Source of the DNA: Tenacibaculum singaporense | GTDB taxonomy: Bacteria; Bacteroidota; Bacteroidia; Flavobacteriales; Flavobacteriaceae | NCBI RefSeq assembly: GCF_003867015.1 | Contig: NZ_CP032548.1 | Span: 682,001-746,000 of the forward strand | DNA: 64,000 nucleotides | Direction of reading: 5' to 3' | Shown: positions 6,184-8,985 of the stretch, piece after piece | How the letters are laid out: each line of letters begins with the position of its first letter | How positions within the stretch are numbered: position 1 is the stretch's first letter | Position numbers and translations under genes: made by a program | Notes under the pieces: generated by a model | What the model saw: only the letters and a program-made list of their open reading frames with translations | Database searches by the model: none | What the model was told of the DNA's origin: nothing

Positions 6184-7029
6184 ATGCGAATTTATCCGAT
6201 AGAAACAGGAAACTTTAAATTAGACGGAGGCGCTATGTTTGGCGTAGTTCCGAAAACGATTTGGCAGAAGACAAACCCTGCCGATGAAAACAACATGATC
6301 TCAATGGGCATGCGTTGTATGTTGATTGAAGATGGTGATCGTTTAACACTAATTGATACAGGTATTGGTAATAAGCAATCCGATAAGTTTTTTGGATATT
6401 ATTATTTATATGGAGACTTTTCATTAGATACTTCTTTGGCAAAACATGGTTTCCATAGAGATGATATTACAGATGTGTTTTTAACACACCTACATTTCGA
6501 TCATTGTGGAGGAGCAATTCAATGGAACAAAGATAGAACGGGGTATGAACCAGCTTTTAAAAACGCACGTTTTTGGAGTAACCAACGTCATTGGGATTGG
6601 GCAGTACACCCAAATGCGAGAGAAAAAGCATCTTTTTTAAAAGAAAACATCTTACCAATTGAAGAAAGCGGACAACTAAACTTTTTACATCTAAACGCAA
6701 AAGATTATGTTGGGTTTGATGTGTTGTTCAAAGATGGACATACCGAAAAACAAATGCTACCGAAAATAGAATATCAAGGAAAAACATTGGTGTTTATGGC
6801 AGATTTACTACCAACAGCAGGTCATATTCCTTTGCCTTATGTTATGGGGTACGATACAAGGCCACTACTTACCTTAAAAGAGAAAGAAGCTTTTTTAAAC
6901 GAAGCAGCAGATAAAGAATTTTACCTGTTTTTAGAACATGATGCTTACAACGAAGTAATAACCGTAAAGCATGCAGAAAAAGGAGTTCGTTTAAAGGAAA
7001 CATTTAAGTTTACAGATGTTTTTAATTAA
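6184..7029 (+). CDS. MBL-fold metallo-hydrolase
   Basis: A 281-residue protein with the complete metallo-beta-lactamase metal motif TxHLHFDHCGG: His102, His104, Asp106 and His107, preceded by LIDTGIGNK. Later metal ligands are DGHTEKQ (His near 218), MADLLPTAGHIP and the C-terminal LEHDAY. Proteins of this kind include quorum-quenching lactonases and many hydrolases of unknown substrate, so the reaction is not assigned. There is no signal peptide, so it is probably cytoplasmic. It is a single-gene unit ending in a strong terminator. Confidence 0.88.
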   Translation: MRIYPIETGNFKLDGGAMFGVVPKTIWQKTNPADENNMISMGMRCMLIEDGDRLTLIDTGIGNKQSDKFFGYYYLYGDFSLDTSLAKHGFHRDDITDVFLTHLHFDHCGGAIQWNKDRTGYEPAFKNARFWSNQRHWDWAVHPNAREKASFLKENILPIEESGQLNFLHLNAKDYVGFDVLFKDGHTEKQMLPKIEYQGKTLVFMADLLPTAGHIPLPYVMGYDTRPLLTLKEKEAFLNEAADKEFYLFLEHDAYNEVITVKHAEKGVRLKETFKFTDVFN

Positions 7030-7061
7030 AAAAGCATGTTTTTTAAAAAACATGCTTTTTG
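7028..7061. terminator. Bidirectional terminator between MBL hydrolase and GG-leader peptide genes
   Basis: AAAAAGCATGTTTTTT and AAAAAACATGCTTTTT form a near-perfect palindrome with T runs on both strands; it lies between two convergent genes. Confidence 0.85.
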
Positions 7062-7064
7062 TTT

Positions 7065-7262
7065 TTAACAATCACCCGTACAACCGTGTCTACTAGAATA
7101 TCTTTTAGTAGGACGAGTACGCGTACCTCCTCCGAAAAATTCTTCATATATTCCATCCATCTCACTTTTCATAACTGCATCCTGACCATTACTACCACCC
7201 TTAATTGTCTTAACTTTTTCTTTTGCTAATTCAAATGTTTTGAATCTTTCTAACTTTTTCAT
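7065..7262 (-). CDS. Double-glycine leader peptide (bacteriocin/RiPP-precursor-like)
   Basis: A 65-residue peptide. Residues 1-23 (MKKLERFKTFELAKEKVKTIKGG) have the layout of Bacteroidota GG-motif natural-product precursors: a lysine-rich amphipathic leader ending in IKGG. The 42 residues after the GG start SNGQDAV and end with Arg/Thr/Ser/Gly-rich sequence and CTGDC, holding the only two cysteines. Promoter-like TTG and TACTTTTA elements lie upstream on the minus strand, and a terminator follows. No C39-peptidase transporter, radical SAM or cyclodehydratase gene is in the window, so export and any maturation would need genes elsewhere. The family call is inferred from the leader. Confidence 0.6.
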   Translation of the reverse strand: MKKLERFKTFELAKEKVKTIKGGSNGQDAVMKSEMDGIYEEFFGGGTRTRPTKRYSSRHGCTGDC

Positions 7263-7344
7263 TATTTATAAAATTTTGTTAATAAAGCCTAAAAGTAGAA
7301 AAATAATAATAGTTTTACAAATGTTTTAAATTAAGATAGAGATT

Positions 7345-8985
7345 ATGAGAGTTTTAAAGCCCGTATTTTACTCGGCAATTGCAGTGGCTACCTTGGCTAG
7401 TTGTAAAACAGTAAGCAAAATCCCTGTGCCAGCAGGAAGTAATACCGTAGTGAACATTCCAGCGAAAAAAGCTGAATTAACAGACTATGAGCAAGAAAAC
7501 TGGCAACATTTAGACTTGGCTACAGATACAATTCCTGGAATGAGTGTAAATAAAGCCTATGAGTTTTTAAAAGGGAAAAAGAATGTAGAAGTTGTAGTTG
7601 GTGTCGTTGATTCTGGAACTGATTTAAAACATGAGGATTTAGTTGATGTAGCTTGGGTAAATACCAAGGAAATACCTGGAGATGGAATAGATAATGATAA
7701 AAATGGATATGTTGATGATATTAATGGATGGAACTTTTTAGGAGATTCTTACAAAGAGCACTTAGAATACGAGCGTATTCTAATGAAACCAGAAGTTGCA
7801 AGTGCAGAACTATTAGCTGAGGTGAAGAATTTTCATGCGAAAAAAGTTGAAGAAGCAAGAGTGAGAAAATTAAATATGGAAAACCGTTTAGCAAATGTTA
7901 AAAAAGCACAAGAACAAATAAAAAAGCACCTTGATAAGGATGCATACTCAGCTGAGGAGATAATGAGTATAAATACTAAAGATAAAAACGTAAAAGATGC
8001 AATTAGTATAGCTAAAATGTACTTTGGCTATGGTTTTTCTTCATTAAAAGAAACCAGTGATTATTTGTCTAGTGATATTAAAAAATCTATAGCTACGATA
8101 AATGAAGATAACTTAAAAACAGATTACCGTACTGTTGTTGGTGATAATGCGTATGATATTAACGATAAACCAGGATATGGAAATGGTAATATAGGTCATT
8201 CTGAAAAAGATGAAGCGCATGGTTCTCACGTTTCAGGTATCATTGGAGCAACAAGAAACAACGATAAAGGAATGAACGGGGTTGCCAATGTAAAAATCAT
8301 GGCTGTACGTTCAGTTTCTGAAGGAGATGAGTACGATAAGGATGTAGCCTTGGGTATTCGTTATGCAGTTGATAATGGAGCGAAAGTAATTAATACAAGT
8401 TTTGGAAAGGCTTTTTCACCAAACAAAGAGTGGGTTTACGATGCAATTAAATATGCAGCATCTAAAGATGTATTAATCGTAAATGCAGCAGGAAATGACG
8501 GTAAAAATATTGATGTTGAGAAGACTTTCCCTAACGATGCACCAGATTTAATGAATGAAGTTGCAGATAACTTTTTAACTATTGGAGCAATGAGTGCTAA
8601 TTATGATAAAACATTACCAGCAAACTTCTCTAATTACGGTAAAAAGAACGTAGACGTATTTGCTCCTGGAGTACAAGTATATTCAACTACTCCAGATAAT
8701 GAATACAAGAAGTTTAATGGAACTTCAATGGCTTCTCCAGCAGCAGCAGGAGTTGCAGCATTAGTACGTTCTTACTACCCTGAGTTAACGGCAAGTCAGG
8801 TAAAGCACATTTTAATGAACTCTGGAACTAAAATAGATTTAGAGGTTGTTAAACCAGGAACAGGAGCTAGATATGGTACTGCGCCTGTAAAAGTTCCTTT
8901 CTCAGAATTATCAGTATCAGGGCGTGTTGTAAATGCATACAATGCAGTAAGAATGGCTGATAGAATGGTAAACGGAAGAAAATAA
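7345..8985 (+). CDS. S8-family subtilisin-like serine protease, lipoprotein
   Basis: The product has 546 residues. The N-terminus is a lipoprotein signal with lipobox TLASC (Cys20). The catalytic triad is visible: Asp89 in VVDSGTD, His292 in AHGSHVSG and Ser461 in NGTSMASPAAAG, with the oxyanion Asn384 in AAGND. About 200 residues, charged and partly coiled-coil-like (140-260), separate Asp and His, far more than in subtilisin; such inserts are known in Bacteroidota S8 proteins. It is expected to be membrane-anchored and face the periplasm or outside. No inhibitor I9 propeptide is clear. It is divergent from the GG-leader peptide gene with 82 bases between; whether that is meaningful is not known. 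Confidence 0.92.
   Translation: MRVLKPVFYSAIAVATLASCKTVSKIPVPAGSNTVVNIPAKKAELTDYEQENWQHLDLATDTIPGMSVNKAYEFLKGKKNVEVVVGVVDSGTDLKHEDLVDVAWVNTKEIPGDGIDNDKNGYVDDINGWNFLGDSYKEHLEYERILMKPEVASAELLAEVKNFHAKKVEEARVRKLNMENRLANVKKAQEQIKKHLDKDAYSAEEIMSINTKDKNVKDAISIAKMYFGYGFSSLKETSDYLSSDIKKSIATINEDNLKTDYRTVVGDNAYDINDKPGYGNGNIGHSEKDEAHGSHVSGIIGATRNNDKGMNGVANVKIMAVRSVSEGDEYDKDVALGIRYAVDNGAKVINTSFGKAFSPNKEWVYDAIKYAASKDVLIVNAAGNDGKNIDVEKTFPNDAPDLMNEVADNFLTIGAMSANYDKTLPANFSNYGKKNVDVFAPGVQVYSTTPDNEYKKFNGTSMASPAAAGVAALVRSYYPELTASQVKHILMNSGTKIDLEVVKPGTGARYGTAPVKVPFSELSVSGRVVNAYNAVRMADRMVNGRK

What the first reader, a model, noticed from the sequence alone, without database searches (positions are those of the whole stretch)
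7065..7262. Double-glycine leader peptide without a local transporter
The 65-residue product has a lysine-rich leader ending IKGG at residue 23 and a 42-residue remainder with only two cysteines, both in CTGDC at the very end. This matches the shape of Bacteroidota GG-motif natural-product or bacteriocin-type precursors. No C39 peptidase exporter or tailoring enzyme is within the window, so it would be an orphan precursor, and the core sequence is not one I recognise.
Basis: partly seen in the sequence, partly recalled or inferred. Interest (0 to 1): 0.6.

Follow-up and report, generated by a model that had tools for sequence, protein, structure and literature searches.

The report
Solitary exported-peptide gene, swapped at fixed site
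In a marine Tenacibaculum bacterium a single small gene for a peptide that is probably cut and exported at a double-glycine signal sits alone between two unrelated genes, where a few related species carry different peptides and most carry none, so it looks like a movable one-gene weapon or signal that borrows its export machine from elsewhere in the genome.

Summary
The ORF is real and on the minus strand (7065-7262): a 23-residue leader ending in IKGG and a 42-residue core ending in CTGDC. The genome (Tenacibaculum, one 3.51-Mb contig) has no C39 exporter inside the window but four elsewhere, plus three grasp-with-spasm clusters.

The peptide is conserved. T. aiptasiae has a homologue (leader and core) at the same place, between a metallo-hydrolase gene and a subtilase gene. 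T. agarivorans and a MAG carry peptides with the same leader but an unrelated core there. Most other genomes have only 0-62 bp between the two genes. The window's extra 305 bp hold a likely bidirectional terminator, the gene and its upstream region, and repeat 21 bp of the hydrolase gene's 3' end.

The leader belongs to a class of about 15 solitary peptides whose cores all have an even cysteine number, as in peptides of the C39 exporter/VKOR-oxidase module, and unlike grasp-with-spasm precursors. T. aiptasiae lacks the grasp-with-spasm maturase but has that oxidase.

Best reading: a solitary, horizontally swapped precursor of a small disulfide-bonded bacteriocin or signal, cleaved and exported in trans by a C39 transporter. 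Export partner and activity are inferred.

The parts
7065..7262 (-). precursor peptide gene, 65 aa
   Evidence: ORF; homologue at the same site in T. aiptasiae, L183:1570-1773
7194..7262 (-). leader, residues 1-23, MKKLERFKTFELAKEKVKTIKGG
   Evidence: solitary-leader class, held-out score 34.7 bits; 57% identical to the leaders of L183 and L172, which were found by position
7068..7193 (-). core, residues 24-65, two Cys in CTGDC; GGG..P..R[YF]S.RH shared with T. aiptasiae
7029..7060 (.). 14-bp-stem hairpin with T/A tails on both sides, likely bidirectional terminator for the hydrolase gene (+) and the peptide gene (-)
   Evidence: + strand hit; shuffles mean 0.2; folds at -14.5 and -14.0 kcal/mol, z -4.05 and -4.76
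7270..7293 (-). upstream block AAAATTTTGTTAATAAAGsCTAAA (written on +) also present upstream of the T. aiptasiae peptide
   Evidence: read directly from the two sequences printed; promoter role inferred
7030..7334 (.). 305-bp insertion relative to sister species
   Evidence: 315-bp spacer here against 10 bp in T. larymnensis, T. discolor, T. lutimaris and T. gallaicum
7009..7029 (+). left copy of a 21-bp direct repeat (3' end of the hydrolase gene)
   Evidence: 19 of 21 identical to 7314-7334; 0 of 5000 shuffles reach the score
7314..7334 (+). right copy of the 21-bp direct repeat, ending exactly where the sister species' 10-bp spacer begins
6184..7029 (+). metallo-beta-lactamase-superfamily hydrolase, left neighbour
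   Evidence: PF00753 71.1 bits
7345..8985 (+). subtilase (peptidase S8), right neighbour
   Evidence: PF00082 161.9 bits

Best explanation
The gene encodes a solitary precursor of a small secreted peptide. A C39-peptidase ABC exporter encoded elsewhere in the chromosome cuts after GG at residue 23 and exports the 42-residue core, whose two C-terminal cysteines are probably joined as a disulfide. The most likely partner is the module at C1:~1.36-1.37 Mb (C39 ABC exporter, HlyD adaptor, C39-like/VKOR/thioredoxin fusion and more than a dozen GG peptides). The mature peptide most likely acts on other bacteria (bacteriocin-like) or as a signal. The gene came as a 305-bp unit with its own terminator and upstream region into the hydrolase-subtilase pair, a site where other Tenacibaculum species have received other peptides. 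Shown: ORF, leader conservation, insertion, direct repeat, site reuse, and presence of the exporters. Inferred: cleavage, partner, disulfide, activity and transfer mechanism. My odds: C39 processing in trans about 0.8; this particular module about 0.5; antibacterial rather than signalling about 0.6.
For: Four C39 ABC exporters in the genome. P0001 fits the solitary-leader class (34.7 bits, held out) better than grasp-with-spasm leaders (24.9) or the exporter-module leaders (-2.8). Cys parity in cores: solitary class 15 of 15 even, module peptides 95 of 97 even, grasp-with-spasm-type precursors 9 of 40 even and non-zero (23 odd, 8 without Cys). Of the 8 in-panel carriers counted, 7 have the VKOR fusion (27 of 97 overall, Fisher p 4.5e-4) and 7 have a C39 domain (40 of 97, p 0.008); the VKOR miss is a 67%-complete genome. 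T. aiptasiae, with the only homologous core, has no TIGR04192 match (99% complete) but has a VKOR fusion 74% identical to the window genome's and, at a contig end, a module-type exporter fragment 94% identical over 105 aa. Site reuse and scattered distribution.
Against: The exporter-module leader profile does not recognise P0001 at all (-2.8 bits), so recognition by that exporter is inferred from co-occurrence and Cys parity, not from leader likeness. Grasp-with-spasm is associated with carriers at least as strongly (6 of 8 carriers against 12 of 97, p 2.3e-5), and 11 of 12 grasp-with-spasm genomes also have the VKOR fusion, so the two cannot be cleanly separated. Fisher tests ignore shared ancestry. 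One carrier (G099, 70% complete) has no C39 match. P0001 has only two Cys, while most of the class has four. No expression, peptide or activity data exist.
Confidence: 0.6

Rival explanations
1. It is an orphan substrate of a grasp-with-spasm system: one of the three GwsG/GwsS pairs in the genome installs ester/amide or radical-SAM-made links on the core before export.
For: Three TIGR04192 genes over cut-off in this genome; P0001 scores 24.9 bits with a profile of 24 leaders next to GwsG genes, 0 of 2000 shuffles reach it, and 24.2 with the nearest leader left out; the G003 peptide directly upstream of GwsG/GwsS-like genes has a similar leader; 6 of 8 carriers have GwsG against 12 of 97. [quoted passage not shown]
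Against: T. aiptasiae, with the only homologous core, has no TIGR04192 match at E<=1e-20 and is 99% complete; G110 (100% complete), a carrier, has none. Leader fits the solitary class better (34.7 bits). Core similarity to the precursors of the C1:480 kb cluster and its G116 counterpart is not significant (122-288 of 2000 shuffles as good). Cys parity differs.
Confidence: 0.2
2. It is a secreted signal (pheromone-like) rather than an antibacterial peptide, using the same export route.
For: Single gene, no adjacent immunity gene; variable cores with a conserved leader also suit strain-specific signals.
Against: No sensor gene next to it (neighbours are a hydrolase and a subtilase). Bacteroidetocin loci also show no immunity gene (PMC6671954 passages), so absence of immunity is no argument for a signal.
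Confidence: 0.2
3. It is a decaying or non-functional gene left by insertion, with no export.
For: Confined to 2 of 166 genus genomes as a core and absent from the nearest sisters.
Against: Intact ORF with terminator and conserved upstream block; leader motif and core motif kept against T. aiptasiae.
Confidence: 0.1

Closest known systems
Bacteroidetocins and class II GG-leader bacteriocins of Bacteroidota (PMC6671954, passages seen)
   Same: Leader ending in GG, small Cys-containing core, C39 ABC exporter and thiol oxidoreductase in the genome, no obvious immunity gene.
   Different: Bacteroidetocins have 15-16-residue leaders, four Cys and a linked four-gene locus; here the leader is 23 residues, there are two Cys, and the gene stands alone. 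Two loci in this genome (L029, L031) look like the linked type.
TIGR04149 / PF14406 / NF047798 GG-leader families of Bacteroidota
   Same: Lys-rich leader with FxxF-like hydrophobics and GG. Class member L144 scores 18.1 bits (TIGR04149), 15.9 (PF14406) and 12.7 (NF047798).
   Different: P0001 and the class members tested fall below the curated cut-offs (not all members were tested).
Grasp-with-spasm precursors (TIGR04192/TIGR04193 systems)
   Same: GG leader of similar length and hydrophobic pattern; enzymes present in the genome.
   Different: No enzyme in 64 kb; nearest homologue's genome lacks GwsG; even Cys parity; core unrelated.
Peptides of the C39/VKOR-fusion module (L030; leader MKKSILNLGKxLxKxEQKxINGG)
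   Same: GG leader, almost always even Cys count, same genomes.
   Different: Leader N-half and overall profile differ (-2.8 bits); those peptides lie in arrays next to the exporter.

Membership tests
C39-processed GG-leader peptides (class II bacteriocin type) | GG (or GA/GS) at the leader end with hydrophobic spacing residues | tested here: met
   IKGG at 20-23; class alignment with invariant I20 and nearly invariant G22, G23
C39-processed GG-leader peptides (class II bacteriocin type) | C39-peptidase ABC exporter in the genome | tested here: met
   four PF03412 matches in G000, best E 2.6e-38
C39-processed GG-leader peptides (class II bacteriocin type) | exporter linked to the peptide gene | tested here: not met
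   none in the 64-kb window
C39-processed GG-leader peptides (class II bacteriocin type) | leader actually cleaved and core exported | not testable with these tools
   needs mass spectrometry
Bacteroidetocins | 15-16-residue leader, four Cys, linked TM protein, thiol oxidoreductase and exporter | tested here: not met
   23-residue leader, two Cys, solitary; definition from PMC6671954 passages
TIGR04149 rSAM-modified GG precursors | score above curated cut-off of 25 bits | tested here: not met
   6.5 bits
Grasp-with-spasm precursors | gene next to GwsG and GwsS | tested here: not met
   GwsG genes at C1:481281, 782453 and 2685496; peptide at 689 kb
Grasp-with-spasm precursors | leader like those next to GwsG | tested here: inconclusive
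   24.9 bits, 0 of 2000 shuffles, but 34.7 bits with the solitary class
Grasp-with-spasm precursors | ATP-grasp or SPASM-made crosslinks on the core | not testable with these tools
   needs mass spectrometry

The most novel reading that the evidence does not exclude
Solitary GG-leader peptide genes in Tenacibaculum are a mobile one-gene cassette system. Units of about 300-420 bp (terminator, peptide, upstream region) enter fixed intergenic sites, possibly by a recombination that duplicates about 21 bp of a gene's 3' end. Core types are exchanged between sites and species, while one resident exporter serves them all: a diversifying arsenal without clusters.
Probability: 0.3. Interest if true: 0.75.

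Novelty: new variant of a known kind. Interest (0 to 1): 0.5.

Why it matters
Genome mining for bacteriocins and RiPPs commonly looks for precursors next to exporters or tailoring enzymes. Here a class of peptides with a shared leader stands alone at scattered sites, below the cut-off of every curated family model tried. If exported in trans they are an unseen part of the arsenal of marine flavobacteria, and the hydrolase-subtilase site gives a clean natural experiment (empty, P0001-type and RCPxGC-type alleles in related species) for how such peptides move and diversify. The question of which exporter serves orphan GG peptides becomes directly testable, since this genome has only four candidates.

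Tried and rejected
Chance ORF: rejected (T. aiptasiae homologue). Non-coding RNA: no Rfam match. Plasmid or phage origin: no tblastn match to P0001 in 72,556 plasmid and 50,697 phage records at E<=1. Solved structures: none. Pfam: none.

Grasp-with-spasm was my first main hypothesis and looked strong. It was demoted after the homologue's genome proved to lack GwsG, the solitary-leader profile scored higher and Cys parity differed. A C-terminal RY...C resemblance to the precursors at C1:480 kb was tested as whole-core similarity and is not significant.

Direct repeats: clear in the window (0 of 5000 shuffles with its own gene end, 6 of 5000 with a sister's), weaker in L172 (40 and 26 of 5000), not significant in L183 (1452 and 794) or L175 (2117; with a sister's gene tail 209). 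So a common insertion mechanism is not shown. A second site (downstream of an E2 acyltransferase gene, G027 and G141) is too variable in other genomes to define an empty allele.

Circularity to note: the nine leaders of the solitary profile were partly found with P0001 itself or with profile A1, which contained P0001 and the L032 leader. L183 and L172 were found by position instead. The A1 search E-value of P0001 itself is therefore not independent. Group limits are score thresholds that I set, and related members count separately. The carriers were listed by hand as 8 panel genomes; L248 (G112), a weak later member with VKOR fusion and C39 but no TIGR04192, was left out of that count, and T. 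aiptasiae and T. agarivorans were not in the 97-genome panel. LanB/LanC and other radical SAM enzymes were not searched for. No structure was predicted (too few relatives).

Papers: 'grasp-with-spasm' gave 0 papers; 'Tenacibaculum' with 'double-glycine' gave 1 paper, on other bacteria by its title; double-glycine/Bacteroidetes/orphan/precursor peptide gave 0. Searches listed nothing on solitary Tenacibaculum peptides that I saw in titles or abstract starts. PMC8939145, PMC6671954 and PMC10352776: passages only. PMC13097080: abstract and outline only.

Full report
What is there. The stretch 7065-7262 holds, on the minus strand, a 65-codon ORF whose product has a 23-residue leader ending IKGG and a 42-residue core with two cysteines, both in the terminal CTGDC. 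The plus strand in the same register has stops. Left is a metallo-beta-lactamase-superfamily hydrolase (6184-7029, +, PF00753) and right a subtilase (7345-8985, +, PF00082). A 14-bp-stem hairpin with T/A tails lies between the hydrolase stop and the peptide stop and folds well on both strands (z -4.05 and -4.76). It is found as a terminator on the plus strand and should serve both genes.

Organism. The window lies at C1:682001-746000 of a one-contig 3.51-Mb genome. The nearest named relatives of the hydrolase are Tenacibaculum larymnensis and T. discolor (99% identical protein), so the genus is Tenacibaculum.

Exporters and maturases in the genome. There are four C39-peptidase ABC exporters. 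One lies in a grasp-with-spasm cluster with GwsG 301.6 bits and GwsS 344.9 bits. One stands among more than a dozen peptides with the leader MKKSILNLGKxLxKxEQKxINGG next to a C39-like/VKOR/thioredoxin fusion. Two lie in loci with a 15-residue GG leader peptide, a membrane protein and a thioredoxin-like protein (the last two names are my reading of the sequences), the layout that PMC6671954 (passages) gives for bacteroidetocins. Two further GwsG genes lie at C1:782453 and 2685496. None of the C39 or GwsG matches is inside the window.

The insertion. In 80 named loci of the hydrolase gene the subtilase start could be placed by script in 62 of 80. Of these 62, 58 have 0-62 bp between the two genes, and four have 115, 367, 379 and 432 bp; the 115-bp one holds no peptide. 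A separate set of 22 loci from the genome search gives 7-21 bp in 20 of 21 non-window loci; the 21st (L117) was misplaced by the script, and its printed sequence shows a 12-bp spacer. In the window the spacer is 315 bp, against 10 bp in its sisters. The 10 bp before the subtilase start (GATAGAGATT) are unchanged, so 305 bp (7030-7334) are extra. The last 21 bp of the insert repeat the last 21 bp of the hydrolase gene at 19 of 21 positions, in exact register with the empty-site junction; 0 of 5000 shuffles reach the score.

The same site elsewhere. The three other long spacers each hold one GG-leader peptide on the opposite strand, with its own hairpin. T. aiptasiae (L183) has MKSIENLKAFEISKEKRKNINGG followed by a core that shares GGG..P..R[YF]S.RH with P0001 (cores: score 47 against a shuffle mean of 23, 1 of 2000 as good). 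The region upstream of the gene also shares a near-identical 24-base block (read). T. agarivorans (L172) and MAG-161 (L175) have the same leader type but another core type (RCPxGC or RCPxNC; the two cores match each other, 0 of 2000 shuffles), without significant likeness to P0001's (203 and 1406 of 2000). The T. agarivorans core also matches strongly the core of a peptide at a different site (between an EamA-type transporter and an M16-type peptidase, names by my reading) in genome G110 (score 114, 0 of 2000). So one site has hosted different cores, and one core type occurs at different sites. On a tree of the hydrolase plus subtilase genes (41 rows), the four carriers need four changes of state, at least three of them forced by well-supported branches; the window groups with non-carriers (T. 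discolor and relatives) and T. aiptasiae with a non-carrier. Such counts cannot tell gain from loss, but the short spacer in outgroup genera makes insertion the derived state.

The leader class. A profile of nine solitary leaders without P0001 scores P0001 at 34.7 bits; a profile of 24 leaders next to GwsG genes gives 24.9, and the exporter-module profile -2.8. With the GwsG profile 0 of 2000 shuffled leaders do as well, so resemblance to that class is real but weaker. Fifteen peptides fall in the solitary class at my threshold. None of those scanned (P0001, L183, L172, L175, L139, L144 and L145) passes a curated NCBIfam or Pfam cut-off. Over 166 genomes of the genus, a profile of P0001 plus the T. 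aiptasiae peptide finds the full peptide only in those two, and leader-only matches in four more genomes.

What it most likely does. All 15 solitary cores have an even, non-zero number of cysteines, as do 95 of 97 peptides of the exporter-module type, but only 9 of 40 grasp-with-spasm-type peptides. This points to disulfides rather than to ATP-grasp or SPASM tailoring. Among 8 carriers in a 97-genome panel, 7 have the VKOR fusion (27 of 97 overall), 7 a C39 domain (40 of 97) and 6 a GwsG (12 of 97). The GwsG association is thus numerically at least as strong, and I cannot correct it for ancestry. But T. aiptasiae, whose peptide is the only full homologue, has no GwsG match at E<=1e-20 (99% complete), while it has a VKOR fusion 74% identical to the window genome's and an exporter fragment 94% identical over 105 residues at a contig end. 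G110, 100% complete, also carries a class member without GwsG. I therefore read the peptide as an orphan substrate of a C39 exporter encoded elsewhere, most likely the VKOR-linked one, yielding a 42-residue, probably disulfide-closed peptide of bacteriocin or signal type. Cleavage, partner and activity are inference.

How known it is. GG leaders, C39 exporters and Bacteroidota bacteriocins are well known (PMC6671954, PMC10352776 and PMC8939145, passages seen). PMC10352776 notes clusters whose precursors carry GG motifs without a local exporter, so an orphan GG precursor is not itself new. A solitary precursor class reusing fixed intergenic sites with exchanged cores was not met in the paper searches that I ran, which cover open-licence papers only.

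Noticed in passing
G000:C1:475000-494900 (L028), 772500-792400 (L064), 2675500-2695400 (L061): Three separate grasp-with-spasm clusters in one genome, each with its own GG precursors; the first includes a C39 exporter and a VKOR-like protein.
   Followed up: partly
G000:C1:~1360000-1370000 (L030): Array of about 15 Cys-rich GG peptides around one C39 exporter, HlyD-like adaptor and a C39-like/VKOR/thioredoxin fusion.
   Followed up: partly
L029:9185-13700 and L031:8916-12470: Two bacteroidetocin-like loci (15-residue GG leader peptide, membrane protein, thioredoxin-like protein, C39 ABC) in a marine Tenacibaculum.
   Followed up: no
L135, L136, L137, L138 (own genome): Further GG peptides without an exporter within about 3 kb; the L137 site has related peptides at the same place in G116 and G027.
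   Followed up: partly
G110 L139 and G045 L143; G118 L144, G035 L148 and G130 L152: Other intergenic sites reused by solitary GG peptides: between an EamA-type transporter and an M16-type peptidase, and next to an RNA-methyltransferase-like gene (in L152 my ORF filter printed no peptide, only the profile match).
   Followed up: partly
L074 (G002): A grasp-with-spasm locus with at least nine tandem precursors, most of them near-repeats with DSRRNDS..DCKK cores.
   Followed up: no
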